From Shinella fusca (GTDB lineage: Bacteria; Pseudomonadota; Alphaproteobacteria; Rhizobiales; Rhizobiaceae): a stretch of DNA of 64,000 nucleotides. The notes beneath the pieces are model-generated. The model did not search any database, had not been told where the DNA came from, and saw only the letters and a program-made list of their open reading frames with translations. The first letter of the stretch is position 1; every line of letters begins with the position of its first letter. Below, in pieces: positions 34,895-56,820 of this stretch. The DNA is taken from NCBI RefSeq assembly GCF_014203155.1, contig NZ_JACHIK010000002.1, positions 124,001 to 188,000 of the forward strand. Reading direction: 5' to 3'. A program made the position numbers and the translations under genes.

Positions 34895-35812
34895 CTAGTC
34901 GGCGAGGCCGGAAAGGGCCTCGCGATCGGCGGCATAGGCGATGAAGACGGCCTTGAGATGTTCCGCCGCCGGCGAAAGGCTGTGGTGGCGGCGCTGGAGC
35001 AGCGAGACGTCGCGCATGACCATCGGCTCGATGAGATCGACGGTCGTCACCCGCACGGCCGAGGCGAGCTGGCTGGAGTTTTCCGGCAGCACGGCGACGC
35101 CCATGCCGGCGGCGATCATGCTCATGGCGGTGGTGGAGAACCGCACCTCGTATTTCGGCCGGTAGTTGGGCACGACGCGCAGGAGATTGTGCTCGACGAT
35201 GTTGCGCAGCGGGTTGGCCGCGGCAAGCGTGATGAGGGTTTCGTCCTTCAGTTCCGTCCAGCGCACGGACTTGCGCTTGGCGAAACGGTGGTCTTCCCGG
35301 CAGACGAGCATCAGCTTGTCGCGCAGCAGGGCCGTCGCGGCGATCTCGGGATCGTCCTCCGACAGCGTGCCGACGGCGATATCGACCTCGTTGCGCTTCA
35401 GCGCCGGGCTGATCTGCTCTTCCGGCATGTCGCGGATGCTGACGGAGATTTCCGGATACATGCGCATGAAGCGCGCAAGGATCGGCGGCACGATGGTCGC
35501 GGCCAGCACGATCGCCGCGGCGATGGTGACCTGGCCGCGCTTCAGCGAGGCGTTGTCGCGCACGTCGCCGACCGCAAGCTCCAGATCCTTCAGGATCTTG
35601 CGCGCCTGCGGCAGGAATTCCTGGCCGACGAGCGTGAGGGAGACCATGCGCGTGTGGCGGTCGAACAGCCGCACGCCGATCTCCGTCTCGAGGTCGCGGA
35701 TGAGGATGCTGACCGCCGACTGGGTGATGTGCAGGTTCCGGGCGGCGAGATTGAACTGGCCAAACTCGGCCACCGCGATGAAGGCCCTGAGTTGCCGCAG
35801 GGTTATGTTCAT
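34895..35812 (-). CDS. LysR-family regulator next to the BMP-type importer
   Basis: A 305-residue LysR regulator. The HTH is in residues 1-60 (LRQLRAFIAVAEFGQFNLAARNL, SAVSILIRDLETEIGVRLFDRH) and an effector domain follows. It is similar along its length to the LysR protein at 44116-45012, including the shared RLFDRHTR and the end SLSPAA. It lies 59 bases downstream of the importer ATPase gene on the same strand and 105 bases before lpiA. It probably controls the importer block rather than lpiA, but this is inference. Confidence 0.92.
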   Translation of the reverse strand: MNITLRQLRAFIAVAEFGQFNLAARNLHITQSAVSILIRDLETEIGVRLFDRHTRMVSLTLVGQEFLPQARKILKDLELAVGDVRDNASLKRGQVTIAAAIVLAATIVPPILARFMRMYPEISVSIRDMPEEQISPALKRNEVDIAVGTLSEDDPEIAATALLRDKLMLVCREDHRFAKRKSVRWTELKDETLITLAAANPLRNIVEHNLLRVVPNYRPKYEVRFSTTAMSMIAAGMGVAVLPENSSQLASAVRVTTVDLIEPMVMRDVSLLQRRHHSLSPAAEHLKAVFIAYAADREALSGLAD

Positions 35813-43163: not shown

Positions 43164-43964
43164 TCAATGGCGATATTGCGGTTCCTCGGCGTCGAGTTGC
43201 CGGCGGATGGCCGCCAGATGGGCTCTTGCGGAATCCGCGTCCCCCTCGCGCATCTGGCGGTAGGCGGCCTCGGCGATCGCCGGATCGACGGGCGTGACCG
43301 TGCGGCCGGTGGACATGGCGAGCACCTGCACCTCGGCGGCCCGTTCGAGGTAGTAGAGGTCGTCCCAGGCCTCCGCGATGGTCGGCGCCAGCACCAGGAC
43401 GCCGTGGTGCTTCATGAAGACGATATCGGCCTCGCCCACCGTTCCGGCGATGCGGGCGCCCTCGGAATAGTCGAGGGCGAGACCGTTGTAGTTCTCGTCG
43501 ACCGCGGTGCGGCCGTAGAACTTGAGCGCCGTCTGCCCGGCCCAGATCAGCGGCTGGCCGTCCGTCATGGAAAGCGCGGTCGCATAGGGCATGTGGGTGT
43601 GGAAGGCGACCCTGGCGCGCGGCAGGCGACGGTGGATCTCGGCATGGATGTAGAAGGCCGTCGCCTCCGGCTCGCCCTCGCCGTCGACGACGGTGCCGTT
43701 GAAGTCGCAAACGAGGAGCTTCGAGGCTGTCAGCTCGCGGAAGGCATAGCCGTAGGGATTGACGATGAAGAGGTCGTCATGGCCCGGCACGACGGCCGAG
43801 AAATGGTTGCAGATGCCTTCCTCAAAGCCGTTGCGGGCGGCCATGCGGAAGCAGGCGGCAAGGTCTTCCTTCGCCGTGCGGATGGCGTCGGTGGAAAGGT
43901 CGGGGCGATTCGGCCGGCCGGTCTCGTCGCAAGAGGCGGCGCGGTCTTTGAGGGAATGAGCCAT
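43164..43964 (-). CDS. Class II aldolase/adducin-family protein
   Basis: A 266-residue protein of the class II aldolase family. The metal-binding histidines are in VAFHTHMPYATALS (about residue 120) and in FMKHHGVLVL (about 186), with EGICNHFSAVVPG near 50. Members act as aldolases, epimerases or decarboxylases on small sugar-like or hydroxy-acid substrates; the substrate here is unknown. The start at 43964 is preferred to an upstream in-frame ATG. It lies between the LysR gene and the amidohydrolase/importer operon, all on the minus strand, and may process a product of that pathway. Confidence 0.85.
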   Translation of the reverse strand: MAHSLKDRAASCDETGRPNRPDLSTDAIRTAKEDLAACFRMAARNGFEEGICNHFSAVVPGHDDLFIVNPYGYAFRELTASKLLVCDFNGTVVDGEGEPEATAFYIHAEIHRRLPRARVAFHTHMPYATALSMTDGQPLIWAGQTALKFYGRTAVDENYNGLALDYSEGARIAGTVGEADIVFMKHHGVLVLAPTIAEAWDDLYYLERAAEVQVLAMSTGRTVTPVDPAIAEAAYRQMREGDADSARAHLAAIRRQLDAEEPQYRH

Positions 43965-45012: not shown

Positions 45013-45023
45013 GGCGACCATTT

Positions 45024-45038
45024 ATCCAATTATTGGAT
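45024..45038. promoter_or_regulatory. LysR box (T-N11-A palindrome)
   Basis: ATCCAATTATTGGAT is a perfect palindrome around one central T, and reads T-N11-A with dyad symmetry. It begins 12 bases upstream of the LysR start, in an AT-rich segment of the divergent gap toward the NCS2 permease gene. Confidence 0.65.
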
Positions 45039-45173
45039 GAATAAATATAATTATGCCGATTGTTTACTGATTTGGCCAGCCTCATGATCCTCGGTGTACG
45101 GCGTGCGGTGCCGAACCTAAGAGGCCAAGATGCCCCCCACCGCGCCGGAACCTGTTCGCTGGGAGGAAAGCGA

Positions 45174-46574
45174 ATGTCCAATCCCGATACCACGACGGAT
45201 CCCGTCGAAAGAATGTACCCGGTCCCGAGCCTTCTGGCACTGGGCCTCCAGCATGTTCTCGTCATGTATGCCGGCGCGGTCGCCGTGCCGCTCATCATCG
45301 GCAGCGCACTGCACCTGCCGAAGGAGCAGGTCGCGATGCTCGTCAGCGCGGACCTCTTCTGTTGCGGTCTCGTGACCATCATCCAGTCGCTCGGCATCTG
45401 GAATGTCGGCGTTCGCCTGCCCATCATGATGGGCATCTCGTTTACCGCCGTGCCCTCGATCATCGCGACGGGCACCAATCCGGACCTCGGCATGCCGGGC
45501 GTCATCGGCGCCGTCATAGGATCCGGTATCTTCACCATCCTCGTGGCGCCGTTCTTCGGGCGCTGGGTGCGCTTCTTCCCGCCGGTCGTCACCGGCACGG
45601 TGATGCTGGTCATCGGCCTGTCGCTGATGCGCGTCGGCGTCAACTGGGCCGCAGGCGGCCAGCCGATGATCAAGGGACCGGACGGCATGATCCCGAACCC
45701 GGCCTACGGCGCGCCCTTCGCGCTCGCCATCGCCGCGCTCGTCCTCGTGTCGATCCTCCTGCTCACCCGCGTTCTCAAGGGCTTCCTGTCCAATCTCGCG
45801 GTGCTGATCGGCATCGGCATCGGCTTTGCCGTCGCCATCGCCTTCGGCAAGGTCGATTTCGGCGGCGTAGGAGATGCCGACTGGGTGCGCGTCATCCATC
45901 CGCTCGCTTTCGGCTGGCCGGTCTTCGAGTTCTGGTCGATCCTGTCGCTCTGTGCCGTCATGACGGTCATGATGATCGAATCGACGGGCCAGTTCCTGGC
46001 GGTCGGCGACATGGCCGGGCGCAAGATCACCCAGGAGGACCTGACGCGCGGCCTTCGCACCGACGGCGTCGGCAACATCATCGGCGGCCTGCTCAACACC
46101 TTCACCTACACGACCTATGCGCAGAATGTCGGCCTGCTCCAGATCACCGGCGTGCTCAGCCGCTGGGTGGTCGCCACGGGCGGCGCCATCCTGATCCTGC
46201 TCGGCGTGCTGCCGAAGGTCGCCTTCGTCAGCGCATCGATCCCCAGCTACGTGGTCGGCGGCGCGGCGATCGTCATGTTCGGCATGGTTTCGGCCACCGG
46301 CGTGAAGATCCTCGCCAAGGTGGATTTCGTCGCCAACCGCCGCAACCTCTACATCGTCGCCGTCAGCGTCGGCCTCGCCATGGTGCCGGTCGTGGCGGAG
46401 AACATCTTCGACAAGCTGCCCGATGCGCTGGACAAGTTCCTGCATAGCGGCGTGCTCGTCGGCACCTTCGCCGCCGCGCTTCTCAACATCCTCTTCAACG
46501 GCGTGCCCGCACGCGAGGAGGACGACCACAGCCACGGCCTGAAGAACGGCGCAGCCGCGCCCGACGCGGCCTGA
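45174..46574 (+). CDS. NCS2-family uracil/xanthine-type permease
   Basis: A 466-residue nucleobase:H+ symporter with about fourteen helices. Family features: LGLQHVLVMYAGAVAVPLIIG near residue 22, the substrate-site Glu269 in MMIESTGQF, and NTFTYTTYAQNVGLLQITGV near 315. The protein ends with a His- and Glu-containing tail. NCS2 members import uracil, xanthine, uric acid or related rings. The start at 45174 has GGGAGG 7 bases upstream. It is the first gene of a plus-strand run that leads into a molybdenum hydroxylase, which suggests the substrate is a ring that is then hydroxylated. Confidence 0.94.
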   Translation: MSNPDTTTDPVERMYPVPSLLALGLQHVLVMYAGAVAVPLIIGSALHLPKEQVAMLVSADLFCCGLVTIIQSLGIWNVGVRLPIMMGISFTAVPSIIATGTNPDLGMPGVIGAVIGSGIFTILVAPFFGRWVRFFPPVVTGTVMLVIGLSLMRVGVNWAAGGQPMIKGPDGMIPNPAYGAPFALAIAALVLVSILLLTRVLKGFLSNLAVLIGIGIGFAVAIAFGKVDFGGVGDADWVRVIHPLAFGWPVFEFWSILSLCAVMTVMMIESTGQFLAVGDMAGRKITQEDLTRGLRTDGVGNIIGGLLNTFTYTTYAQNVGLLQITGVLSRWVVATGGAILILLGVLPKVAFVSASIPSYVVGGAAIVMFGMVSATGVKILAKVDFVANRRNLYIVAVSVGLAMVPVVAENIFDKLPDALDKFLHSGVLVGTFAAALLNILFNGVPAREEDDHSHGLKNGAAAPDAA

Positions 46575-46638
46575 AGGCAACATACGCAACATCTCCGGCG
46601 GCTCCACGCCGCCGGATCCCTGAACAAAGAGGAAAGCC

Positions 46639-47502
46639 ATGAGACGCTTTGACTATCATCGGGCGGAAACGCTGGAGCACGCCTCCCGTCTTCTCACCGA
46701 ACTCGGTGACGATACCTTCCTGTTCGCCGGTGGAACGGACCTTCTGGTCGAGATCCGGGAGCGGCTGCGCCGCGTGCGCAACGTCGTCGACATCAAGGCG
46801 ATCCCCGGCCTTTCCGACATCACCTACGACGAGACGCGCGGGCTGACCTTCGGCGCCCTGGTGACGGTCGGCCGGCTGGAGCGTCTGCCGCTGGTGCGCC
46901 AGCGCTATCCGAACCTGCGCGCGGCCTTCGCCTCGCTCGGCTCCATCCAGGTGCGCAACCGCGCGACGGTCGTCGGCAATATCTGTCGCGCCTCGCCGTC
47001 CGCCGACACCATTCCGCCGCTGATCGCGGACGGCGCCTTCGTCCATATCTACAGCCGCACCGACATGCGCGTGGTGCCGCTTTCCGAATTCTTCACCGGG
47101 CCGGGCAGGACCGTGCTCGCCAAGGGCGAGATCGTCACCGGCATCACGGTGCCGCCGGCCGCCGACAACAGCGGCAAGGCCTATCTCAAGCACGGCCGGC
47201 GCAAGGCGATGGAGCTGTCCACCGTCGGCGTCGCCGTCAGCCTCCTGATGGAGGAGGGCGTCTGCAGCGATATCCGCATCGCGCTCGGCGCCGTCGGCGC
47301 GACCGTGCTGCGCGCCTCGCAGGCCGAGGCCATGCTGCGCGGCACCGCGCTCGACGCGGCAACCGTCAAGAGCGCCGCGGACAAGGCGATGGAGGAGTGC
47401 ACGCCGATCAGCAACGTGCGCGCCAGCGCCGATTACCGCCGCGACATGGTCGGCGTGCTCACGGGCCGCGCCATCAAACAGGCATTGGAGACTTTCGCAT
47501 GA
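46639..47502 (+). CDS. Molybdenum hydroxylase, FAD-binding medium subunit
   Basis: A 287-residue FAD subunit of the xanthine dehydrogenase/CO dehydrogenase superfamily. FAD-binding motifs are FLFAGGTDLLVEIRE near residue 28 and TVVGNICRASPSADTIPPL near 109. The C-terminal domain (CO_deh_flav_C) follows from about 180. The start is 64 bases after the permease stop, preceded by AGAGGAAAG. The gene order medium, small, large differs from classical XdhAB and is that of many three-subunit hydroxylases acting on N-heterocycles or CO. It overlaps the next gene by ATGA. Confidence 0.93.
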   Translation: MRRFDYHRAETLEHASRLLTELGDDTFLFAGGTDLLVEIRERLRRVRNVVDIKAIPGLSDITYDETRGLTFGALVTVGRLERLPLVRQRYPNLRAAFASLGSIQVRNRATVVGNICRASPSADTIPPLIADGAFVHIYSRTDMRVVPLSEFFTGPGRTVLAKGEIVTGITVPPAADNSGKAYLKHGRRKAMELSTVGVAVSLLMEEGVCSDIRIALGAVGATVLRASQAEAMLRGTALDAATVKSAADKAMEECTPISNVRASADYRRDMVGVLTGRAIKQALETFA

Positions 47503-47981
47503 AGAAGATCGTCGAATTCACCGTGAACGGCGAGCCGCGCGAGATGACGGTGGACACCTGCCGCTCGCTGCTCGACGCGCTGCGCGAGGAGGTCGGCCTT
47601 ACCGGCACCAAGAAGGGCTGCGACGTCGGCGACTGCGGCGCCTGCACCGTCATCGTCGACGGCGAACCGGTCAATGCCTGCCTCATGCTGGCCGTGGAGG
47701 CCGAGGGCCGCTCGGTCCAGACCGTCGAAGGGCTTCAGCCTGGCGTCGACAGGCTTCATCCGCTGCAGGACGCCTTCATGCGGCACGGGGCGTCGCAATG
47801 CGGCTTCTGCACGCCGGGCATCCTGATGATGGCCAAGAAGCTGCTCGACGACAACCCGAACCCCACCGACGAGGACATCCGCTTCGGCCTGTCCGGCAAT
47901 ATCTGCCGCTGCACGGGCTACACCAAGATTTTCGACGCGATCAAATCCGCCGCGCGCGAGATGGAGGCAGCAAGATCATGA
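47499..47981 (+). CDS. Molybdenum hydroxylase, 2Fe-2S small subunit
   Basis: A 160-residue subunit with both iron-sulfur clusters. The plant-ferredoxin-type cluster uses Cys41, Cys46, Cys49 and Cys61 (KGCDVGDCGACTVIVDG). The second cluster uses Cys101, Cys104, Cys136 and Cys138 (QCGFCTPG and ICRCTGY). It passes electrons from the molybdenum centre to FAD. It overlaps both neighbours by ATGA, which indicates tight coupled expression. Confidence 0.95.
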   Translation: MKKIVEFTVNGEPREMTVDTCRSLLDALREEVGLTGTKKGCDVGDCGACTVIVDGEPVNACLMLAVEAEGRSVQTVEGLQPGVDRLHPLQDAFMRHGASQCGFCTPGILMMAKKLLDDNPNPTDEDIRFGLSGNICRCTGYTKIFDAIKSAAREMEAARS

Positions 47982-50284
47982 ACATGACGACCCCGATCGA
48001 AAAGCGCGAGTTCAAGATCGTCGGCAAGAGCGTCAAGCGCGACGACGTCCTGGAAAAGGTGACAGGCGAGGCGCAGTATACCGGCGACGTCAAGCTGCCG
48101 GGCATGCTCTACGGCAAGATGAAGCGCGCCGCCGTCGCCCATGCGCGCATCAAGAGCATCGACGTCAGCAAGGCGCTCGCCTATCCGGGCGTCAAGGCCG
48201 TGCTGACGCATGAGAACGTGCCGCGCGTCCTGCACTATGGCTCGCCGCATCCGCGCTCGGCCTCCTGCACCAAGGACCAGTACATCCTCGACGACCGCGT
48301 GCGCTTCTGGGGCGAGGGCGTCGCCGCCGTCGCCGCCATCAGCGAGGAGATCGCCGACGAGGCGCTCGACCTCATCGAGGTGGAATACGAGCCCCTGCCG
48401 GCCGTCTTCGACCCGGACGAGGCCGTCAAGCCGGGCGCGCCGATCCTCCACGAGGTCGGCCCGGGCGGCAACCTGGTGCTCGACCCGGTCCGCGTCAACC
48501 GCGGCGACGTCGAGGCGGGCTTCGCCGAGGCCGACTTCGTGCTCGAAGGCGTCTTCTCCGGCGGCCGGCCGCATCCGGCCTATATGGAGCCGAACATCTG
48601 CATCGCCGACTGGGACGGCTCCAACAAGCTCACCGTCTGGATCTCGACGCAGACCTCCTTCATGGTGCGCGGCATCCTTGCCGAAGTGCTCGGCCTGCCG
48701 CTCACCAAGGTGCGCGTCCTTGTCGACCATATGGGCGGCGGCTTCGGTGCCAAGCAGGATTGCTTCCAGCACGAATTCCTCTGCGCGCTCCTTGCAAAGG
48801 AGACGCGCCGGCCGGTGAAGATGGAGTTCACCCGCCACGAGACGTTCGTCGCCGGCCGCGCCCGCCATCCCTGCAAGGTCTGGCTCAAGCAGGGCTTCCG
48901 CAACGACGGCACCATCGTCGCGCGCGACATGAAGCTCGTCTACGATTCCGGCGCCTACGGCTCGCACGGCCCGGGTGTCACGACGGTCGGCACGAATGCC
49001 GCGACCTCGCTCTATCGCTGCGAGAACGTGCGCATCGAGGGCCGCTGCGTCTACACCAACACGCCGATCACCGGGGCCTTCCGCGGCTACGGCGTGGTGC
49101 AGAGCTACTATGCGCTCGATATCCAGATGGACGAGGCGGCAGAACGGCTCGGACTGGACCCGGCCGAGGTGAAGCTGAAGAACGCCGTCCGCCAGGGCGA
49201 CATCGCGCCCTCCGGCCATGCGATCGTCGGCCACGGGCTCGAGACCTGCATCAAGCACGGCATCGACGCCATCGGCTGGAAGAAGCTGCGCGAGCGCGAC
49301 CGCACGCCGGACCCGAAGCGCCCGCATATCCGCAAGGGCTGGGGCGTCGGCTGTGAGATGCACGGCTCCTCCGCCTATCCGGGCATCAAGGAGCAGGGCA
49401 ACGCCACGGTGAAGGTCAACGAGGACGGCACGGTGACGCTGCTCACCGGGGCCGCCGGCCTCGGCACCGGCGCGCATACCGCGCTGGCGCAGATTGTCGC
49501 CGAAGAGCTTGGCGTGCGCTTCGAGGATGTCGGCGTCATCCACGGTGACACCGACGTCGTGCCGTGGGATATCGGGGCCTTCGCCAGCCACACGACCTAT
49601 CTCGTCGGCAGCGCCGCCAAGATCGCCGCCGGCAAGGCGCGCGAAGCCGTGCTGGAACGGGCGGCGATGAAGCTGCAGGTCCAGGTCGGCGAGATCGATG
49701 CGAGCGAAGGCCGCGTCTTCGTGATCGCCGAACCCGGCCGCTTCATCAGCGTTGCCGAGGCCATAGGCCCGTCGAAGGGCATACCGGCCGCCAACATCGT
49801 CGGCAACGGCACCTACGAGCCGACGAAGTCCTATTCCTTCGCCGCCCACTTCACCGAAGTGGACGTCGACACGGAAACCGGGATCGTCGAGGTCAAGCGG
49901 GTCATCCCGGTGCACGATGTCGGCCGGGTCATCCACCCGATCGCCGCGCAGGGCCAGATCGAGGGCGGCATCCAGCAGGGTATCGGCCACACGCTGACCG
50001 AGGACTACGTCATCGACAAGAAGACCGGCCGCTCGCTCAACGCGGGCCTCGTCGACTACAAGATGCCGCTGTCCATGGACATGCCGGACATCGAGACGAT
50101 CATCCTGGAAGCCGCGCCCGATCCGGGCGGACCGTGGGGTGCCAAGGGCGTCGGCGAGGACCCGATCATCGCCATCGGCCCCTCCATCGCCAATGCCATC
50201 CACGACGCCATCGGCGTCCGCTTCCACCACTATCCGATCACCCCGGAAGACATTCTGAAAGCCTTGAGGGAGAAGGACGCATGA
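47978..50284 (+). CDS. Molybdenum hydroxylase, molybdopterin-binding large subunit
   Basis: A 768-residue catalytic subunit. N-terminal aldehyde oxidase/xanthine dehydrogenase a/b hammerhead domain, then cofactor-binding domains. Motifs: GGGFGAKQD near residue 253, GAFRGYGVVQ near 365, and the catalytic Glu727 in GAKGVGED. There is no CO dehydrogenase active-site loop (AYRCSFR type), so CO is not the substrate. The group hydroxylates N-heterocycles, aldehydes or purines next to a ring nitrogen using water. Substrate cannot be told from sequence, but the NCS2 permease upstream argues for a nucleobase-like ring. XdhC, needed to sulfurate such enzymes, is encoded at 55882. Confidence 0.93.
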   Translation: MNMTTPIEKREFKIVGKSVKRDDVLEKVTGEAQYTGDVKLPGMLYGKMKRAAVAHARIKSIDVSKALAYPGVKAVLTHENVPRVLHYGSPHPRSASCTKDQYILDDRVRFWGEGVAAVAAISEEIADEALDLIEVEYEPLPAVFDPDEAVKPGAPILHEVGPGGNLVLDPVRVNRGDVEAGFAEADFVLEGVFSGGRPHPAYMEPNICIADWDGSNKLTVWISTQTSFMVRGILAEVLGLPLTKVRVLVDHMGGGFGAKQDCFQHEFLCALLAKETRRPVKMEFTRHETFVAGRARHPCKVWLKQGFRNDGTIVARDMKLVYDSGAYGSHGPGVTTVGTNAATSLYRCENVRIEGRCVYTNTPITGAFRGYGVVQSYYALDIQMDEAAERLGLDPAEVKLKNAVRQGDIAPSGHAIVGHGLETCIKHGIDAIGWKKLRERDRTPDPKRPHIRKGWGVGCEMHGSSAYPGIKEQGNATVKVNEDGTVTLLTGAAGLGTGAHTALAQIVAEELGVRFEDVGVIHGDTDVVPWDIGAFASHTTYLVGSAAKIAAGKAREAVLERAAMKLQVQVGEIDASEGRVFVIAEPGRFISVAEAIGPSKGIPAANIVGNGTYEPTKSYSFAAHFTEVDVDTETGIVEVKRVIPVHDVGRVIHPIAAQGQIEGGIQQGIGHTLTEDYVIDKKTGRSLNAGLVDYKMPLSMDMPDIETIILEAAPDPGGPWGAKGVGEDPIIAIGPSIANAIHDAIGVRFHHYPITPEDILKALREKDA

Positions 50285-51420
50285 ACATGCACATCCAACC
50301 CGCCGAACGCAAACTCCCGATCACCATCCTCACGGGGTTCCTGGGGTCGGGCAAGACGACGCTGCTCAACTACATCCTCACCGAGCGCCACGGCCACCGC
50401 ATCGCGGTGATCGAGAACGAATACGGCGAGGTGGACGTCGACAGCGACCTCGTGCTCGCCTCGGACGAGGAGATCTTCCAGATGCAGAACGGTTGCATCT
50501 GCTGCTTCGTCGACGTGCGCAACGACCTGATCGACGTGATGAAGAAGCTCCTCAGCCACAAGGACAAGTTCGACCACATCATCGTCGAGACCTCCGGCCT
50601 TGCCGACCCGACGCCGGTCGCCACCGCCTTCTTCGTCGACCGCAGCGTCGCCGAGGAAGTCGAGCTCGACGCCATCGTGACGCTGGTCGACGCCATGCAT
50701 ATCGACCAGCACCTCTACGACCCGGTGCTCGACGGCAGCGACAACCAGGCGGTCAACCAGATCGTCGCGGCCGACCGCATCCTCGTCAACAAGATCGACC
50801 TTGCCGAGGAGGACGCTCTCGGCTCGCTGGAGGGCTCGCTGCGCAAGCTCAACCAGACGGCGCCGATCCTGCGCTCCAGCTACGGCAAGGTCGACCTTTC
50901 CAATATTCTCGGCGTCAACGGCTTCCGCCCGTCCTATGTGCGCGAGCGGGCGGAGATCCTCGACATCGACCTCGACGACGACCGCGACGCACATGGCCAT
51001 CACGACCACGATTGCCACGATGCGGCCTGCGACCATCCCGATCACGACCATGCCCATGATCACCATCACGGCGACGAGGGCGGCAAGGCCGGCCCGATCT
51101 CGCTGCGCCCGCACCGGCACGACGCGACGGTGAAGTCCCATTCCTTCGTCTATCCGGAGCCCTTCGACGGTGAGAAGCTCGCGGCTTTCCTGAAGGATTA
51201 CCTCGCCGAGCACGGCGACGACATCTTCCGCACCAAGGGCATCGTCTCGGTGGCGGACGACGAGCGCTTCTTCGTGCTCCAGGCCGTCCACAAGCTGGTC
51301 GATTTCCGGGCCGATCACGCCTGGGGCGAGGACAAGCCGAAGTCGAAGTTCGTCTTCATCGGCCGCAATCTCGACCGTGAGGGTATCGACAGAAACTTGC
51401 GTGCATGCCTGGCGGCCTGA
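50281..51420 (+). CDS. COG0523/CobW-family metallochaperone GTPase
   Basis: A 379-residue P-loop GTPase with metal-binding features. Motifs are GFLGSGKTT (residues 19-27), the conserved GCICC metal motif (71-75), NKIDLAEED near 172, and a His/Asp-rich linker (about residues 235-265, with more than ten His) before the C-terminal CobW_C domain. The family delivers zinc, cobalt or iron-related metals to target enzymes. It overlaps the hydroxylase large subunit gene by ATGA, so it is part of the same operon. The client could be the hydroxylase or the metal-dependent amidohydrolases encoded next; this is inference. Confidence 0.92.
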   Translation: MNMHIQPAERKLPITILTGFLGSGKTTLLNYILTERHGHRIAVIENEYGEVDVDSDLVLASDEEIFQMQNGCICCFVDVRNDLIDVMKKLLSHKDKFDHIIVETSGLADPTPVATAFFVDRSVAEEVELDAIVTLVDAMHIDQHLYDPVLDGSDNQAVNQIVAADRILVNKIDLAEEDALGSLEGSLRKLNQTAPILRSSYGKVDLSNILGVNGFRPSYVRERAEILDIDLDDDRDAHGHHDHDCHDAACDHPDHDHAHDHHHGDEGGKAGPISLRPHRHDATVKSHSFVYPEPFDGEKLAAFLKDYLAEHGDDIFRTKGIVSVADDERFFVLQAVHKLVDFRADHAWGEDKPKSKFVFIGRNLDREGIDRNLRACLAA

Positions 51421-51467
51421 CGGCGCTTCTCCCGCTCTCAAGCCGCTTTCGCAAGTCCTCTGTCTGA

Positions 51468-51499
51468 ACCGCCCGCGCACCCTCCAGCGCGCGGGCGGT
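51468..51499 (+). terminator. Hairpin after the hydroxylase/COG0523 operon
   Basis: Eleven-bp arms ACCGCCCGCGC and GCGCGGGCGGT enclose a 10-base loop, 47 bases after the COG0523 stop. A short run of T is not obvious after it, so it may be a rho-type or processing hairpin. Confidence 0.5.
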
Positions 51500-51557
51500 C
51501 GCTGCCGTTTGTGCGGAAAAATCCTTTTAAAAATAATGGGTTAGATTGATTATTTTA

Positions 51558-51586
51558 TTGACATAAAGCCCGCCCTGTGGTCTTTT
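51558..51586 (+). promoter_or_regulatory. Possible sigma70-type promoter for the amidohydrolase genes
   Basis: TTGACA at 51558-51563 is a perfect -35 element, followed after 17 bases by TCTTTT as a weak -10. The surrounding AT-rich block fits a promoter. The transcript would have a leader of over 200 bases before the gene at 51823. Confidence 0.4.
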
Positions 51587-51822
51587 CGCAGGCGAGTAGA
51601 AGCACCGACAATTGCTCACCGTCTGTTGGAAGATGAGGCTGCGATGTCGATGCTGACTACGAAAGGAACGCCCGGTTGCCCCCGCCTTGGGGACGATGCG
51701 CCGGCCCGTTCCCTCCGTCATTGGCATTTCCTGAGATCGCGGATCCACGCCCGGCTTTTGCCGGCATGGCGTTCATCGCGCGGCCCCGCATCGACCGGAC
51801 CCTCTACGACAGGAGAACAGGA

Positions 51823-52746
51823 ATGATAATCGACCTAAGCTGCTACCCCACCGACCTGGTGGACCTGGCTTGGCGCCATGACGGACCGCCGTTCACCGGC
51901 GACAAGCTTCTGAAGATGATGGACGGCCCGTACTACGTGAACGGCAAGCCGCGCCGCATCGACAAGGCCTTCATCCAGCCGCCGCAGGGCAACACCATCT
52001 ACACCCACGAGGTCATGGACCTGGAAGGCAAGGCCGCCATCCGCCAGTACATGGGCTATACGGAAAAGATGGTGACCGAGCATCCCGACCGCTTCCTCGG
52101 CTGCTTCGTCTACAACCCGCGTTACGGCGTGCAGAACGGCGTCGACGAAATCGAACGCTACGCCAAGGAATTCGATTTCAAGATGGTCCAGCTCCAGGCA
52201 AACATGCACGCCTACCGCCCGGACCGCGCACTCGACTGGCTGCGCCCGGCCATGAAGAAGTGCGCCGAGCTCGGCCTGATGGTGAAGGTGCATACCGGTG
52301 ACGGTCCGTACTCGATCCCGACGGAATTCTATCCGATCATCCGCGAGTTCCCGGAAATCAACTTCATCCTCGCGCATTTCGGCGTGCAGACCGGCGGCGT
52401 CTACGTGTTCGAGCCCATGCAGATGGCCCTCGACACGCCGAGCGTCTATGTCGAATCCGGCTGGTGCCTCCAGTCGCGCATCGTCGAGTTCGCCAAGGTC
52501 CTGCCCAAGCACAAGATCCTCTTCGGCTCAGATACGCCGCCGAACGAGCCGGGCATGTGGATCAACCTTCTGGAAGTCCTCTGCCACGAGCCGCCGCAGG
52601 GCCTCAACCTCGATGAGGACACGCTGGAGGACTACCTCGGCAACAACCTCGCCCGCATGATCGGCCTGGAGCCGACCGCCCCGCCGGCAACCGTCGAGGA
52701 AGCCGAGGCGTATCTGCGCCAGCACGGCGTCCAGATCGCCGCGTAA
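51823..52746 (+). CDS. Amidohydrolase-2 family protein lacking the HxH metal motif
   Basis: A 307-residue TIM-barrel protein of the amidohydrolase_2 (ACMSD/resorcylate decarboxylase-like) family. It is a close paralog of the protein encoded next, yet the start reads MIIDLSCYP where the paralog has MIIDTHLHP, so both histidines of the HxH metal site are replaced (Ser6, Tyr8). Later ligands are kept: His in VKVHTGDGP, His in LAHFGVQTGG and Asp in LFGSDTPPN. It may bind metal differently, act as a non-catalytic partner, or have a different reaction. ATG at 51823 has AGGAGAACAGGA upstream. The next gene begins 16 bases later. Confidence 0.88.
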   Translation: MIIDLSCYPTDLVDLAWRHDGPPFTGDKLLKMMDGPYYVNGKPRRIDKAFIQPPQGNTIYTHEVMDLEGKAAIRQYMGYTEKMVTEHPDRFLGCFVYNPRYGVQNGVDEIERYAKEFDFKMVQLQANMHAYRPDRALDWLRPAMKKCAELGLMVKVHTGDGPYSIPTEFYPIIREFPEINFILAHFGVQTGGVYVFEPMQMALDTPSVYVESGWCLQSRIVEFAKVLPKHKILFGSDTPPNEPGMWINLLEVLCHEPPQGLNLDEDTLEDYLGNNLARMIGLEPTAPPATVEEAEAYLRQHGVQIAA

Positions 52747-52762
52747 ACGAACGGAGTGAACA

Positions 52763-53710
52763 ATGATCATCGATACCCATCTTCACCCGACCAACCTCGT
52801 CGACGAGGCGTGGCGTCATACGGGTACGCCCTTCACGGGCGAGCGCATGCTCAAGCTGATGGACGGCCCCTACATGATCAACGGCAAGCCGCGCCGTATC
52901 GACATGGGCTTCATCCAGCCGCCGCCGGGCAATACCGGCTACCGTGACGGCAACCGCAAGGGCCGCGAGGGCATCCGCGACTACATGGCCTATATCGCCG
53001 AGCTGTGCGAGAAGTATCCGGACCGCTTCATCGGCAACTTCAACTACAACCCGCGCTGGGGGCCTGAGAACGGCGCTGCGGAGCTGGAATTCCACGTCAA
53101 GGAATACGGCTTCAAGATGCTGAAGCTCCATGCCAACATGCACGGCTACCGTCCCGACCGCGCGCTCGAATGGCTGCGTCCGGCGATGAAGAAGTGCGCC
53201 GAGCTCGGCGTCGTCGTCCTCATCCACACCGGCGACGGCCCGTACACCATCCCGACGATGTTCTACCCGATCATCCGCGAGTTCCCGATGGTCAACTTCA
53301 TCATCGGTCACTTCGGCATCCAGACGGGCGGCAACTATTCGTTCGAGTCCTTCTGGATGGCGATGGATACGCCGAACGTCTACTGCGAATCCGGCTGGTG
53401 CTTCCAGTCGCGCATCGTGGAGTTCGCCCAGCAGCTTCCGAAGAACAAGATCGTCTTCGGCACGGACAGCCCGCCGAACGACCCGGGCATGTGGCTGCGC
53501 GAGCTGGAAGTGCTCTGCAAGGATCCGCCGCACGGCATCAACCTCTCCGAGGACGACCTGGAAGGCTATCTCGGCAACAACATCGCCAAGCTCGTCGGCA
53601 TCGACCCCTCGCCGCCGCCGCGCGACCTGAAGGACGCCCAGGCGCGCCTGACGGACAGCTACGCCGGCGTCGACCGCGCCACCGGCAAGCACCTGCTGCA
53701 GCCGGCCTGA
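52763..53710 (+). CDS. Amidohydrolase-2 family protein with intact metal site
   Basis: A 315-residue TIM-barrel hydrolase or decarboxylase with the full metal set: HxH in MIIDTHLHP (His6, His8), His in LIHTGDGP near 155, His in IIGHFGIQTGG near 187 and Asp in FGTDSPPN near 235. Strongly similar to the preceding gene product over most of its length, with a few extra C-terminal residues. The family includes ACMSD, resorcylate and isoorotate decarboxylases and hydrolases of ring products. Together with the upstream paralog it may form a hetero-oligomer. Confidence 0.9.
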   Translation: MIIDTHLHPTNLVDEAWRHTGTPFTGERMLKLMDGPYMINGKPRRIDMGFIQPPPGNTGYRDGNRKGREGIRDYMAYIAELCEKYPDRFIGNFNYNPRWGPENGAAELEFHVKEYGFKMLKLHANMHGYRPDRALEWLRPAMKKCAELGVVVLIHTGDGPYTIPTMFYPIIREFPMVNFIIGHFGIQTGGNYSFESFWMAMDTPNVYCESGWCFQSRIVEFAQQLPKNKIVFGTDSPPNDPGMWLRELEVLCKDPPHGINLSEDDLEGYLGNNIAKLVGIDPSPPPRDLKDAQARLTDSYAGVDRATGKHLLQPA

Positions 53711-53717
53711 CGAATGA

Positions 53718-53742
53718 CGCCCGCCGCTCAGGGCGGCGGGCG
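53718..53742. terminator. GC-rich hairpin after the amidohydrolase pair
   Basis: Ten-bp arms CGCCCGCCGC and GCGGCGGGCG enclose a 5-base loop, 7 bases after the stop codon. There is no T-run, so it may be a weak terminator or may protect the message end. Confidence 0.5.
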
Positions 53743-53745
53743 AAG

Positions 53746-53864
53746 GCCCCCTCATCCGGCCCTGCGGGCCACCTTCTCCCCGGAGGAAGAAGGGGAGGTG
53801 CGGACCTCACGGTTTTCCCCCTTCTCCCCTCGGGGAGAAGGTGCCGGCAGGCGGATGAGGGGGC
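53746..53864. repeat. RIME-like intergenic palindromic repeat
   Basis: A 119-base imperfect palindrome. The left arm at 53746-53781 begins GCCCCCTCATCCGG and ends CCTTCTCCCC; the right arm at 53832-53864 is its near-exact inverse, differing mainly in the centre of the arm. The interior also contains opposed CTTCTCCCC-like blocks. Repeats with CCCTCATCCG...CCTTCTCCCC arms are widespread between genes in rhizobia (RIME-type elements). It follows the amidohydrolase pair and precedes the ubiD-like gene; a run of T after it could terminate transcription. Confidence 0.7.
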
Positions 53865-53918
53865 TTTTATACATCGGGCGGCCGCCGCGCCGCCAACCCC
53901 GAGCACCGAGGCCGAGAG

Positions 53919-55292
53919 ATGACCGAGTACCACAAGCAAGACGTCCGCCGCTTCCTGGCCGATTACCGGGACCGGCATCCCGAGGACGTCATCACCATCG
54001 ACCGGCCGGTCTCGGACGATCAGGACGCCACGGCCCTGATCTGGACCCTTGCGGACAAGGGGCAGCATCCGCTGCTGCACCTGAAAAACGTCAGCGGCGT
54101 CGGTGCGCAAGTTCTCTGCAACATCTTCGCCTCGCGCGAGCGCATCGCCCGGCTTCTCGGTTCGACCGCCGACAGGTTGCACGAGGCCTACCAGGCCCGC
54201 GCCAACAAGCCCTTCGCGCCGGAGGTAGTGGAAAGCGGCCCGATCACCGAGGAGATCATCTCCGGCGACGCCGTCGATCTCCACGCGCTGCCGATGCTGA
54301 AACACTTCGACACCGACCGCACGAAATACATCACCAGCGGCATCATCATCGGCGAGAACCCGGAAACGGGCGCCGGCAATCTCAGCTATCACCGGGCGAT
54401 GATCCATTCGAAGAATTCGCTCGCGACGTCGCTGCATTCGCGCGGCCATCTCTGGCGCCTGATGAACACGGCGAAGGAGAAGGGCAAGCCGATGCCGGTC
54501 GCCATGGTGATCGGCGGCCATCCGCTGTTCATGATCGCCGCCTCCGCGCGCCTTGCCTTCGGCGAGGACGAGCGCGACGTCGCCGGCGGCCTGATGGGCG
54601 AACCGCTCCAGGTCGTGCGCACGCCGAAATACGGCATCCGCGTTCCCGCCCATGCCGAGATCGTGCTGGAAGGCGTGATCGATCCCGAGGCCCATGTTGA
54701 GGAGGGGCCGTTCGGCGAGTTCACCGGCTATTCCTCCGACCGCTCGACCAACAACCTCTTCACCGTCGAGACGATCATGCGCCGACGCGACGCCATGCTC
54801 GTTTCCGTGGCGGGCGGCAATTCGGCCGAACACCTCAACCTCGGCCGCGTGCCGCGCGAAGCCGAGGTGGTGGAGAAGCTGAAGGCCCGCTTCCCCTCGA
54901 TCACGGCGGTTCACTATCCGTCCTCCGGCACCCATTTCCACGCCTATATCGCGATGAACCAGACGCGCGAGGGCGAGGCGCGGCAGGTCATGCTCGGCCT
55001 TCTCGGCTGGGACCAGTACCTGAAGAACGTCGTGGTGGTGGACGCGGACGTCGACATCACCAAGGACTCGGAAGTGCTCTGGGCGCTCGCCACCCATTTC
55101 CAGCCGCACAAGGACGTCGTCATCATCGAGGGCCTGCCGGGCAATGCGCTCGACCCGTCGGCGAGCGGCATCGGCACGACCTCGCGCATGGGGCTCGATG
55201 CGACGCGCGGGCCGAATTTCCACGGCGTGCGCGCGCGCATCAGCGACGAGGCCAATGCGCGCGCCGCCGCACTCCTTGCAAGCGCGGGATAG
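53919..55292 (+). CDS. UbiD-family prenyl-FMN-dependent decarboxylase
   Basis: A 457-residue reversible (de)carboxylase of the UbiD family. It carries the prFMN-contacting segment NLSYHRAMIHSKN with the family Arg, and the catalytic pair Glu262 and Glu267 in EGPFGEFTGY. Members act on aromatic, heteroaromatic or cinnamic acids. It is followed after 3 bases by a UbiX-type gene, which would supply its cofactor, so this is a dedicated pair and probably not the ubiquinone pathway copy. Context (nucleobase permease, Mo hydroxylase, amidohydrolases) points to decarboxylation of a ring or ring-opened acid. Confidence 0.93.
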   Translation: MTEYHKQDVRRFLADYRDRHPEDVITIDRPVSDDQDATALIWTLADKGQHPLLHLKNVSGVGAQVLCNIFASRERIARLLGSTADRLHEAYQARANKPFAPEVVESGPITEEIISGDAVDLHALPMLKHFDTDRTKYITSGIIIGENPETGAGNLSYHRAMIHSKNSLATSLHSRGHLWRLMNTAKEKGKPMPVAMVIGGHPLFMIAASARLAFGEDERDVAGGLMGEPLQVVRTPKYGIRVPAHAEIVLEGVIDPEAHVEEGPFGEFTGYSSDRSTNNLFTVETIMRRRDAMLVSVAGGNSAEHLNLGRVPREAEVVEKLKARFPSITAVHYPSSGTHFHAYIAMNQTREGEARQVMLGLLGWDQYLKNVVVVDADVDITKDSEVLWALATHFQPHKDVVIIEGLPGNALDPSASGIGTTSRMGLDATRGPNFHGVRARISDEANARAAALLASAG

Positions 55293-55295
55293 GCG

Positions 55296-55880
55296 ATGAG
55301 CGAGCGGCCAGCACGCATGATCGTCGGCATTTCGGGCGCTTCCGGAGCCATCTACGGCAAGCGCATCCTCGAAGTGCTGCGCGACCTCGGGGTCGAGACG
55401 CATCTGGTCATGTCGCGCGCCGCCTGCATCACGCTGGCGGCCGAGGCGGACTTCACGAAGCAGGACCTCGAGGCGCTGGCGACGACCACCCATTCCAACA
55501 AGGATATCGGCGCGGTCTGCTCCTCCGGCTCCTACAAGACGCTCGGCATGATCGTCGCGCCCTGCTCGGTGAAGACCATGGCCGAGATCGCCACCGGCAC
55601 GACGGACAACCTCCTCTCGCGTGCCGCCGACGTGGTACTGAAGGAACGCCGCCGGCTCGTGCTGATGCTGCGCGAGACGCCGCTGCATCTCGGCCATATC
55701 AGGAACATGGCGCAGGTGACCGAAATGGGTGGTATCATCTACCCGCCCGTTCCCGCCTTCTACGCCCGGCCCAAAAGCCTGGAGGACATGGTCGACCACA
55801 CGGTCGGCCGGGTCCTCGATCTCTTTGACCTCGACGCCGGTATCGTGCGACGATGGCAGGGAACGCAAGGAGTGGAGTGA
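55296..55880 (+). CDS. UbiX-family flavin prenyltransferase
   Basis: A 194-residue flavoprotein that attaches a prenyl group to FMN to make prFMN for UbiD enzymes. FMN-binding motif VGISGASGAIYGKRI at residues 10-24, SSGSYKTLGMIVAPCSVKTMAEIATG near 75-100, and RRLVLMLRETPLHLGHIRNM near 125-145. The start is 3 bases after the UbiD-type stop, so the two are co-translated. It is followed by xdhC. Confidence 0.94.
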   Translation: MSERPARMIVGISGASGAIYGKRILEVLRDLGVETHLVMSRAACITLAAEADFTKQDLEALATTTHSNKDIGAVCSSGSYKTLGMIVAPCSVKTMAEIATGTTDNLLSRAADVVLKERRRLVLMLRETPLHLGHIRNMAQVTEMGGIIYPPVPAFYARPKSLEDMVDHTVGRVLDLFDLDAGIVRRWQGTQGVE

Positions 55881-55881
55881 C

Positions 55882-56820
55882 ATGGCCGCCCTTATCGCCT
55901 CCGACCCGCAGACGCTGACGCTAGAACCGCGCGCCGCATTCCTTTCCGACGACGCCGACGAGATTCTGGGCTTTGCCGCCCGATGTCTCGAGGAGGGCCA
56001 CAAGGCGGCCCTCGTCACCCTCGTCGAGATCCATGGCGGTGCGGCCCGCGCCATCGGTGCGCAGATGGCGGTGCGCGGGGACGGGCTTTACTGCGGCTTC
56101 GTTTCCGGCGGCTGCACCGAGGCGGCCGTGGCGGCGGAGGCCGCGAGCGCCATTGCCAAGGGCGTCGACCGGAACCTCCGCCTCGGCGAAGGCTCACCCT
56201 TCTTCGATATCGTGCTGCCCTGCGGCGGCGGCATCACCCTTGCCATCCATGTCCTGCGCGATGCCGATCCGCTGCACCGGGCGCTCGCCGCACTGGAGCG
56301 GCGCATGCCTGTGCGCCTGCGCTACGATCCCGGCGCGCAGGCGCTTTCCCTCGCTCAGGGCGCAGGCCCGACCGGCTGGGAGAATGACTGTTTCATTCGT
56401 CGGTACCGGCCGAAGGAGCGGCTAGTTCTGGCCGGCGGCCCTGCCGAGACGGGGCGGGTCGCCGCGGTCGCGACGGCGGCCGGCTATGAGGTGATCGTCG
56501 TCGAGCGCGGCAAGGTGCCCGCACCGGGCGACGTCGATGCGGATACGGCGGTCGCGATCCTCTTTCACGACGTCGATCGGGAAGTGCCGCTGCTCGAGCA
56601 GGCGCTCGCCACCGACGCCTTCTACATCGGCGCGCTCGGCAGCCGGCGTACGCATGAGAAGCGCTGCGCCGCCCTTCGCGAACGGGGCGTCGAGGCCGCC
56701 GCGCTGGCGCGCATCCGCGCGCCCATCGGGATTTTCGACAAGGCGCGCGATTCCCGCTCGCTCGCCGTTTCCGTCGTCGCGGATATCGCGCAGGCGCGGC
56801 TGGCCGGCGCGGCGGAATAG
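55882..56820 (+). CDS. XdhC-family molybdenum cofactor maturation protein
   Basis: A 312-residue XdhC/CoxI protein. The N-terminal XdhC/CoxI domain has LVTLVEIHGGAARAIGAQMAV near residue 46 and GLYCGFVSGGCTEAAVAAEA near 72. The C-terminal Rossmann-type domain has LVLAGGPAETGRVAAVATAAG near 178 and AFYIGALGSRRTHEKRCAAL near 250. XdhC binds molybdenum cofactor and helps sulfurate and insert it into xanthine-dehydrogenase-type enzymes. Its place at the end of this gene run ties it to the hydroxylase at 46639-50284, although the UbiD/UbiX genes lie between. Start at ATG 55882, 1 base after the UbiX stop. Confidence 0.9.
   Translation: MAALIASDPQTLTLEPRAAFLSDDADEILGFAARCLEEGHKAALVTLVEIHGGAARAIGAQMAVRGDGLYCGFVSGGCTEAAVAAEAASAIAKGVDRNLRLGEGSPFFDIVLPCGGGITLAIHVLRDADPLHRALAALERRMPVRLRYDPGAQALSLAQGAGPTGWENDCFIRRYRPKERLVLAGGPAETGRVAAVATAAGYEVIVVERGKVPAPGDVDADTAVAILFHDVDREVPLLEQALATDAFYIGALGSRRTHEKRCAALRERGVEAAALARIRAPIGIFDKARDSRSLAVSVVADIAQARLAGAAE

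What the first reader, a model, noticed from the sequence alone, without database searches (positions are those of the whole stretch)
45174..56820. Undescribed N-heterocycle catabolic cluster with a Mo hydroxylase, paired amidohydrolases and a UbiD/UbiX module
Seen: one plus-strand run of NCS2 permease, three-subunit Mo hydroxylase, COG0523 GTPase, two amidohydrolase-2 proteins, UbiD, UbiX and XdhC, with a divergent LysR gene at the head. Known: each family acts in import, hydroxylation, ring hydrolysis or decarboxylation of aromatic or nucleobase-like rings. Inferred: these form a single pathway in which a ring is imported, hydroxylated next to nitrogen, hydrolysed, and a carboxylate removed by a prFMN enzyme. 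I know of no characterised pathway with this exact set. HMF/furoate degradation (HmfABC plus HmfF/HmfG) is the nearest analogy, but the CoA ligase step is absent here.
Basis: partly seen in the sequence, partly recalled or inferred. Interest (0 to 1): 0.85.

Follow-up and report, generated by a model that had tools for sequence, protein, structure and literature searches.

The report
Candidate pterin-breakdown gene cluster
A block of genes shared by soil bacteria from several groups looks like an undescribed route for eating a nucleobase-like ring, most likely a pterin, and it carries one working-looking enzyme beside a sister copy that has lost metal-binding residues.

Summary
Every named gene is present, and the unit extends upstream to about 34895 with an ABC importer, a CodA-like deaminase (AHcod), an aldolase and a second LysR.

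It is a real unit. Two amidohydrolase-2 genes (AH2a, AH2b) plus UbiD occur together in 43 of 43 loci examined. The pair co-occurs with a nucleobase-type deaminase: AHcod in the same 7 of 199 genomes of the window's family; IxpD, a relative of PDB 2PAJ, in the same 8 of 198 Pseudomonas-family genomes (80, 81) and in 37 of 38 pair-positive Burkholderia-family genomes (43, 44).

AH2a lacks the HxH metal motif in 43 of 43 loci; AH2b keeps it. The pair is probably one enzyme.

Best reading (inferred, 0.42): pterin catabolism to xanthine by deaminase, Mo hydroxylase, ring contraction by the AH2 pair, and UbiD. This would supply genes for a pathway I recall from 1960s biochemistry (EC 5.5.1.3). No substrate was tested. 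Against: 2PAJ lies in an unlinked sister group; UbiD on a purine C8 acid is unprecedented to my knowledge; five loci lack a nearby Mo enzyme.

The parts
34895..35812 (-). LysR-type regulator at the far end of the divergent arm
   Evidence: Pfam; 90% identical to the gene in the same place in Ensifer L160
35872..37404 (-). ABC transporter ATP-binding protein
   Evidence: 91% identical to the annotated ATPase of L160
37410..38342 (-). ABC permease (BPD_transp_2)
   Evidence: Pfam; 92% to L160
38420..39514 (-). ABC permease (BPD_transp_2)
   Evidence: Pfam; 88% to L160
39585..40580 (-). BMP/PnrA-like substrate-binding protein
   Evidence: Pfam Bmp; 88% to L160
40609..41625 (-). second BMP/PnrA-like substrate-binding protein
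   Evidence: Pfam Bmp; 69% to the one BMP gene of L160
41647..42942 (-). AHcod, CodA/AtzC-like amidohydrolase (predicted nucleobase- or pterin-type deaminase)
   Evidence: Pfam, PDB relatives, below cut-off in the 25 NCBIfam families shown of 37; present in the same 7 of 199 genomes as the AH2 pair
43164..43964 (-). class II aldolase family protein (role unknown; accessory)
   Evidence: Pfam, NF005068 above cut-off; an aldolase is annotated in the same place in L037, L160 and L161
44116..45012 (-). divergent LysR-type regulator
   Evidence: Pfam; start placed by homology
45020..45042 (.). candidate LysR operator, ATTTAT-N11-ATGAAT
   Evidence: partly conserved among 18 aligned intergenic regions; inferred
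45174..46574 (+). NCS2 permease of the xanthine (pbuX) subfamily
   Evidence: TIGR03173 521 bits, cut-off 414
46639..47502 (+). FAD subunit of the molybdenum hydroxylase
   Evidence: Pfam, NCBIfam
47499..47981 (+). [2Fe-2S] subunit
   Evidence: Pfam, NCBIfam
47978..50284 (+). Mo-binding subunit; paralogue outside the curated XDH families
   Evidence: NF043082 648 bits, cut-off 780; TIGR02965 335 bits, cut-off 849.5
50281..51420 (+). COG0523 (CobW) GTPase with His-rich loop, predicted metallochaperone
   Evidence: Pfam; His-rich loop read
51421..51822 (+). about 400-base gap with an A+T-rich stretch; possible second promoter for the AH2/UbiD module
   Evidence: read in sequence; the consensus scan found no promoter-like site here; inferred
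51823..52746 (+). AH2a, amidohydrolase-2 paralogue without the HxH metal motif (DxSCYP); predicted pseudoenzyme partner
   Evidence: 43 of 43 loci; alignment; model
52763..53710 (+). AH2b, amidohydrolase-2 with intact ligands (HLHP, H155, H183, D235)
   Evidence: 43 of 43 loci for HLHP; invariant columns; model
53919..55292 (+). UbiD-family (prFMN) decarboxylase
   Evidence: TIGR00148 307 bits, cut-off 245
55296..55880 (+). UbiX-family flavin prenyltransferase
   Evidence: TIGR00421 and NF004685 above cut-off
55882..56820 (+). XdhC-family Mo-cofactor insertion protein
   Evidence: Pfam XdhC_C and XdhC_CoxI above cut-off

Best explanation
A catabolic unit for pterins (2-amino-4-oxopteridines) that ends in xanthine. 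Shown: the gene content, the conservation, the link to a deaminase, the loss of the HxH motif in AH2a, and separate XDH, allantoinase and allantoicase genes in the same genome. Inferred: an NCS2 permease and an ABC importer bring in the ring. A deaminase (AHcod here, IxpD in beta- and gammaproteobacteria) removes the amino group of the pyrimidine half. The Mo hydroxylase adds oxo groups to the pyrazine half, giving tetraoxypteridine. AH2b with its metal-motif-free partner AH2a acts as one enzyme that opens the oxamide-like ring and recloses it as an imidazole, giving xanthine-8-carboxylate. UbiD, with prFMN from UbiX, removes the carboxylate; if the substrate is pterin-6-carboxylate, UbiD could instead act earlier on the 6-carboxylate. 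Xanthine then enters the ordinary route. The COG0523 GTPase would supply metal to AH2b, and XdhC would mature the Mo enzyme.
For: 2) The best PDB relative of IxpD is 2PAJ (452 bits, against 296 for 3HPA). I recall 2PAJ as isoxanthopterin deaminase and 3HPA as 8-oxoguanine deaminase (Hall 2010, not held); PMC5270733 (passages) says such enzymes deaminate isoxanthopterin and pterin-6-carboxylate. 3) IxpD and its sister group, which holds 2PAJ, share APTT, RGG and ADH[HN]Y tracts (24 of 24 sequences) where 3HPA has APCS, RGA and SDHLY. 4) The permease is of the xanthine subfamily. The Mo enzyme is related to XDH, and that xanthine oxidase acts on pterins is stated in PMC5270733; legends in PMC11121863 place XDH in the isoxanthopterin and xanthopterin branches of insects (passages). 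5) The genome has its own XDH, guanine deaminase, allantoinase/OHCU decarboxylase and allantoicase genes elsewhere (uricase not sought), so the cluster is not the ordinary purine route. 6) The order deamination, Mo oxidation, isomerisation, decarboxylation matches a pterin-to-xanthine pathway that I recall for Alcaligenes (McNutt, 1960s; EC 5.5.1.3). A metabolomics table lists tetrahydroxypteridine and xanthine-8-carboxylate for one mass (PMC5941619, passage), as isomers must be.
Against: No activity was measured and no substrate is shown. The window genome has no IxpD orthologue (best 29-30% identity); its AHcod is a different family with no above-cut-off NCBIfam match among the 25 shown. 2PAJ belongs to a sister group (727 bits to L105) that is not linked to AH2 genes (0 of 7 loci), so specificity is transferred across groups at most 56% identical. 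The best structural matches of AH2a and AH2b are mainly decarboxylases of what I call the ACMSD clade, not ring isomerases; both models are of middling confidence. prFMN chemistry on a carboxylate flanked by two nitrogens has no precedent that I know. Five loci with about 8-15 kb on each side have no Mo enzyme nearby (L030, L033, L113, L124, L126). No paper describing the McNutt pathway was seen in searches (judged from listings).
Confidence: 0.42

Rival explanations
1. The unit breaks down another nucleobase-like or azaaromatic acid (for example a pyrimidine, pyridine or pyrrole carboxylate, or the thiamin pyrimidine): the deaminase removes an exocyclic amino group, the Mo enzyme hydroxylates, UbiD decarboxylates and AH2b is a further decarboxylase or C-C hydrolase. 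This is.
For: The structural neighbours of AH2b are decarboxylases, a hydratase (LigJ) and a C-C hydrolase (LigY), and those of AH2a include isoorotate decarboxylase. AHcod is nearest to cytosine deaminase and AtzC-type enzymes. UbiD enzymes on furan, pyrrole and indole acids are known (recalled).
Against: The permease is of the xanthine subfamily, and the deaminase used in beta- and gammaproteobacteria is nearest in the PDB to 2PAJ. A second decarboxylase would not explain an obligate partner without the metal motif.
Confidence: 0.25
2. An aerobic version of the clostridial xanthinase route: the two AH2 proteins open xanthine to 4-ureido- and then 4-amino-5-imidazolecarboxylate, UbiD decarboxylates it to 4-aminoimidazole and the deaminase acts on that.
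For: Xanthine-type permease; two amidohydrolases, a decarboxylase and a deaminase; the aminoimidazole acid is chemically apt for prFMN (inference). The clostridial route is outlined in PMC12507026 (passages) and PMC3519856 (passages).
Against: It needs two active hydrolases, but AH2a has lost HxH in 43 of 43 loci. It leaves the Mo hydroxylase without a role. The window genome already has XDH, allantoinase/OHCU decarboxylase and allantoicase genes. No imidazolonase is named in the annotated stretches, though no search was made for one.
Confidence: 0.13
3. Two neighbouring modules with separate functions: a Mo-hydroxylase module and an AH2-UbiD module that often travel together.
For: The Mo genes are inverted relative to the core in Sinorhizobium and separated by other genes in Paracoccus L029, are of two distant types, and are absent from 5 well-flanked loci. 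A gap of about 400 bases precedes AH2a.
Against: Some Mo enzyme lies in the stretch with the core in 36 of 43 loci, and an NCS2 and a GTPase gene are present in 42 of 43 whichever Mo type is there.
Confidence: 0.12

Closest known systems
Pterin catabolism of Alcaligenes via tetraoxypteridine isomerase, EC 5.5.1.3 (McNutt; recalled, no paper seen)
   Same: Needs a deaminase, a Mo-type oxidase, a ring isomerase and a decarboxylase, and yields xanthine
   Different: No genes for it are known to me; the assignment of the AH2 pair and UbiD is inference
Isoxanthopterin deaminase, PDB 2PAJ (Hall 2010; entry recalled, activity from passages in PMC5270733)
   Same: IxpD of the beta/gamma clusters matches it with 452 bits and shares several tracts
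   Different: 2PAJ lies in a sister group that has xanthine riboswitches in the same stretch in 2 of 2 loci scanned (L105, L107); no orthologue of IxpD in the window genome
   Same: Mo hydroxylase plus UbiD/UbiX; the best PDB hit of UbiD is 6H6X/6H6V, which I recall as HmfF
   Different: No CoA ligase found; has an NCS2 permease, a deaminase and the AH2 pair
ACMSD-clade amidohydrolase-2 enzymes (2,6-dihydroxybenzoate decarboxylase, LigW, ACMSD, LigJ, LigY)
   Same: Fold and metal-ligand pattern of AH2b; ACMSD uses an arginine from a neighbouring subunit (title of 4IFK)
   Different: 12-18% identity among the 50 matches shown for AH2b, and an obligate partner that lacks the HxH motif
Clostridial xanthinase pathway (PMC12507026 and PMC3519856, passages)
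   Same: Amidohydrolases and a decarboxylation acting on a purine
   Different: Anaerobic, in Clostridia and Bacilli; its gene families were not seen
Reductive uric acid pathway (PMC12507026, abstract and passages)
   Same: XDH homologue and an amidohydrolase (SsnA) in one cluster
   Different: UbiD is not mentioned (0 hits in the main text) and the chemistry differs

Membership tests
UbiD family decarboxylase (TIGR00148) | score above the curated cut-off | tested here: met
   306.9 bits, cut-off 244.85; UbiX partner also above cut-off
UbiD family decarboxylase (TIGR00148) | prFMN-dependent decarboxylation | not testable with these tools
   needs an assay
Xanthine permease PbuX (TIGR03173) | score above the curated cut-off | tested here: met
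   521.3 bits, cut-off 414.15
Xanthine dehydrogenase (NF043082, TIGR02965) | score above an equivalog cut-off | tested here: not met
   648 against 780; 335 against 849.5; the genome's XDH elsewhere scores 1360
ACMSD-clade amidohydrolase-2 enzyme, AH2b | HxH on strand 1, later His and a C-terminal Asp as metal ligands | tested here: met
   HLHP in 43 of 43; H155, H183, D235 invariant among 30 rows; ligand roles recalled
ACMSD-clade amidohydrolase-2 enzyme, AH2a | HxH on strand 1 | tested here: not met
   DxSCYP in 43 of 43; also KLH becomes QxQ in the 10 AH2a rows
Isoxanthopterin deaminase (2PAJ group) | orthologue in the window genome | tested here: not met
   best own-genome matches 29-30% identity
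Isoxanthopterin deaminase (2PAJ group) | beta/gamma cluster deaminase falls inside the 2PAJ group | tested here: not met
   sister group, at most 56% identity between groups; no tree was built
PRK12393 amidohydrolase family (NF009059), IxpD | score above the curated cut-off | tested here: met
   776.7 bits, cut-off 543; function of the family not named
Isoxanthopterin deaminase (2PAJ group) | activity on isoxanthopterin | not testable with these tools
   needs an assay
Cytosine deaminase (NF005759 and relatives), AHcod | score above a curated cut-off | tested here: not met
   210 bits, cut-off 403
McNutt pterin-to-xanthine pathway (EC 5.5.1.3) | ring isomerisation of tetraoxypteridine | not testable with these tools
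   needs an assay; pathway recalled
HMF/furoate cluster | acyl-CoA ligase in the cluster | tested here: not met
   none among the genes named in 34895-56820
Clostridial xanthinase pathway | two active metal-dependent ring hydrolases | tested here: inconclusive
   AH2a lacks the HxH motif, but loss of activity was not shown

The most novel reading that the evidence does not exclude
AH2a/AH2b is a hetero-oligomeric ring-contracting isomerase, an active amidohydrolase paired with an obligate pseudoenzyme, that turns tetraoxypteridine into xanthine-8-carboxylate, and the neighbouring UbiD is the first prFMN enzyme known to decarboxylate a purine C8 acid. The cluster would then be the missing genetics of bacterial pterin catabolism, carried on plasmids and chromosomes of rhizobia, Paracoccus, Burkholderia relatives and Pseudomonas.
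Probability: 0.22. Interest if true: 0.85.

Novelty: new variant of a known kind. Interest (0 to 1): 0.6.

Why it matters
Pterins are widespread in living things, yet I know of no gene set for their complete bacterial catabolism. If the reading holds, the cluster gives candidate genes to an enzyme activity described decades ago without a gene (EC 5.5.1.3, recalled), shows how a pteridine can be turned into a purine, and adds a case of an obligate catalytic plus pseudoenzyme pair. Sinorhizobium meliloti 1021 carries it on pSymB, so it can be tested directly in a laboratory strain.

Tried and rejected
1) The Mo enzyme as the genome's xanthine dehydrogenase: rejected, because another gene scores 1360 bits, above the XDH cut-off.
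2) IxpD as a member of the characterised 2PAJ group: rejected after testing a group-2 gene (727 bits to 2PAJ). The claim was lowered to sister group.
3) Riboswitch control of the cluster: no Rfam match at gathering score in the window, and no riboswitch in five cluster loci scanned (L017, L113, L112, L124, L121; these were 5 of the 43). The xanthine riboswitch appears only in the two group-2 stretches scanned (L105, L107).
4) Literature. Searches showed, by their listings, no bacterial pterin pathway with these genes. Two searches on guessed S. meliloti locus tags gave none and one passing mention of SMb20132 (PMC12542648, passage); I did not verify that this tag belongs to the cluster. One search led to PMC4016543 (abstract and passages), a different purine route; search 97 to the xanthinase papers. 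PMC5941619 (passage) only lists the two compounds as putative ions. The library holds only open-licence papers, so absence here is weak.
5) Tsx-like porin beside IxpD in L017: below the Pfam cut-off; not used.
6) VIA-align second look: library not available.
7) IxpD thresholds (67% or more, 78% or more) were set after seeing the gap to the next group (55% or less and 54% or less). The genomes are related, so the Fisher values overstate the evidence.
8) Rows dropped: one over-long group-2 reading (L106) before the comparison. Promoter and terminator scans were uninformative (3 promoter-like sites against 1.3 expected, sd 0.9; 6 terminator-like against 5.8).


Full report
What is there. Reading outward, the divergent arm from 45012 back to 34895 encodes LysR, a class II aldolase, a CodA-like amidohydrolase (AHcod), two BMP binding proteins, two ABC permeases, an ABC ATPase and a second LysR. 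The same arm stands in the same arrangement in Ensifer plasmids L160 and L161, with one BMP gene instead of two, and the window genes are 69-92% identical to those of L160. Three Aminobacter loci (L009, L015, L016) carry AHcod and the transporter on the other side of the operon, so the link survives rearrangement.

How conserved. The one genome-contig scan, made with UbiD, returned 18 loci. Sixteen rhizobial loci keep LysR-NCS2-FAD-FeS-Mo-GTPase-AH2a-AH2b-UbiD-UbiX in order, two of them (L012, L013) without an XdhC match; two Pseudomonas loci (L017, L018) keep AH2a-AH2b-UbiD-UbiX with other neighbours. Among plasmids, 91 records hold AH2b, with 182 places in all, and each of the 60 records listed has two places. 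In a sample of 398 genomes of the window's phylum 4 are positive, the window's own included, each with two places.

AH2a, AH2b and UbiD are in 43, UbiX, GTPase and NCS2 in 42, an Xdh-type Mo subunit in 26, an Ior-type in 10, AHcod in 11, IxpD in 14, and no stretch has both deaminases. Since loci were found by UbiD or AH2b, one member is present by selection. Eighteen stretches show no deaminase. Thirteen of these are rhizobial stretches that begin near the LysR gene, so that the arm beyond it was not fetched; in L160, fetched longer, AHcod is there. For L115, L117, L120 and L121 IxpD was found on another contig or further along. L031 ends just after a second NCS2 gene. The loci are not independent: L032 and L114 are the same stretch by record length, and L026 and L036 are two S. 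meliloti strains.

The deaminase link. Genomes searched are unnamed; I infer the families from the loci they match. Window's family (Rhizobiaceae): 7 of 199 genomes hold the AH2 pair and the same 7 of 199 hold AHcod, on one contig in 6. Pseudomonas-like family: 8 of 198 hold the pair; 31 of 198 hold an IxpD-like gene at E 1e-130 or better, of which the same 8 score 78% or more and the other 23 score 54% or less. Burkholderia-like family: 38 of 200 hold the pair; 37 of these and none of the other 162 hold IxpD at 67% or more; G525 lacks it; a second group at 49-55% occurs in 13 places. In the 34 of 37 genomes with both on one contig, the distance is 5.4-17.1 kb.

What the deaminase says. IxpD from L017 hits 2PAJ with 452 bits and 3HPA with 296. 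I recall from Hall 2010 that 2PAJ is isoxanthopterin deaminase; the paper is not held, and PMC5270733 (passages) reports such enzymes from Sargasso DNA with activity on isoxanthopterin and pterin-6-carboxylate. A result against my reading: a group-2 gene (L105) matches 2PAJ with 727 bits, and none of seven group-2 loci carries AH2 or UbiD. So the cluster enzyme is a sister of the characterised group: at most 56% identity between groups, with 37 group-fixed columns, 6 of them insertion columns, in 24 aligned sequences (18 and 6; one over-long reading dropped). The sister group has xanthine riboswitches in the same stretch in the 2 of 2 loci scanned (L105, L107). PMC7373994 (passages) names PRK12393-type amidohydrolases among genes under this riboswitch, and IxpD scores above the PRK12393 cut-off (777 against 543). 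That ties this deaminase family to purine oxidation, though not this cluster.

The amidohydrolase pair. AH2b keeps the HxH pair, H155, H183 and D235. AH2a has DxSCYP instead of DTHLHP in 43 of 43 loci and differs at the KLH tract, while the later ligands stay. AH2b is 83% or more identical to the window's in all 43 loci. The two models are of middling confidence (mean pLDDT 71.2 and 70.2, from 20 sequences each). Their best PDB matches are dihydroxybenzoate and 5-carboxyvanillate decarboxylases, ACMSD and relatives at 12-18% identity. Since ACMSD needs an arginine from a neighbouring subunit (title of entry 4IFK), I infer that AH2a is a structural or substrate-binding partner of AH2b and that the pair makes one reaction.

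The rest of the pathway. The Mo subunit falls below the cut-offs of the XDH families it matches, while the genome has an XDH at C7 above cut-off with guanine deaminase, PuuE/OHCU decarboxylase and allantoicase genes nearby (uricase was not sought). The permease is a xanthine-type NCS2. Put together with a pterin pathway that I recall from McNutt's work (isoxanthopterin, trioxopteridine, tetraoxypteridine, xanthine-8-carboxylate, xanthine), the gene set fits step for step: deaminase, Mo oxidase, ring isomerase, decarboxylase. In insects, XDH and an isoxanthopterin deaminase are placed in the pterin branches (PMC11121863, passages), so the first two steps have a precedent. The fit is inference. 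The weakest step is UbiD on a carbon between two nitrogens; an open variant puts UbiD on a pteridine-6-carboxylate before ring contraction.

Regulation. An inverted repeat ATTTAT-N11-ATGAAT lies between LysR and NCS2 at 45020-45042 and is partly conserved in 18 aligned regions. Consensus scans were uninformative.

Verdict. A real, conserved catabolic unit, larger than reported, with an unusual obligate enzyme plus pseudoenzyme pair. Not shown: any substrate, any activity, any co-regulation.

Noticed in passing
L105:13159-13237, L107:5466-5529 and 5729-5814: Xanthine (NMT1) riboswitches lie 3-4 kb from the sister-group deaminase that matches 2PAJ; in L105 ABC-transporter-like reading frames lie between them.
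   Followed up: partly
L021 and L132 (G000:C4:277944-281844): The same genome has a second place where a divergent Mo-hydroxylase subunit adjoins UbiD- and UbiX-like genes; possibly an HMF/furoate-type cluster.
   Followed up: no
L037:22127-28890: In Shinella zoogloeoides the cluster on a plasmid is directly followed by two Tn3-family transposase genes, in line with mobility.
   Followed up: no
L029:20361-20903: A MobA-like NTP transferase gene next to XdhC in Paracoccus, perhaps for Mo-cofactor tailoring of the cluster's Mo enzyme.
   Followed up: no
L018:9952-12862: An M20-family gene and an NCS1 permease (cytosine/purine/allantoin family) adjoin the cluster in one Pseudomonas.
   Followed up: partly
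L161:24086-26847: A second uracil-xanthine permease and another amidohydrolase are annotated just beyond the cluster in Ensifer canadensis.
   Followed up: no
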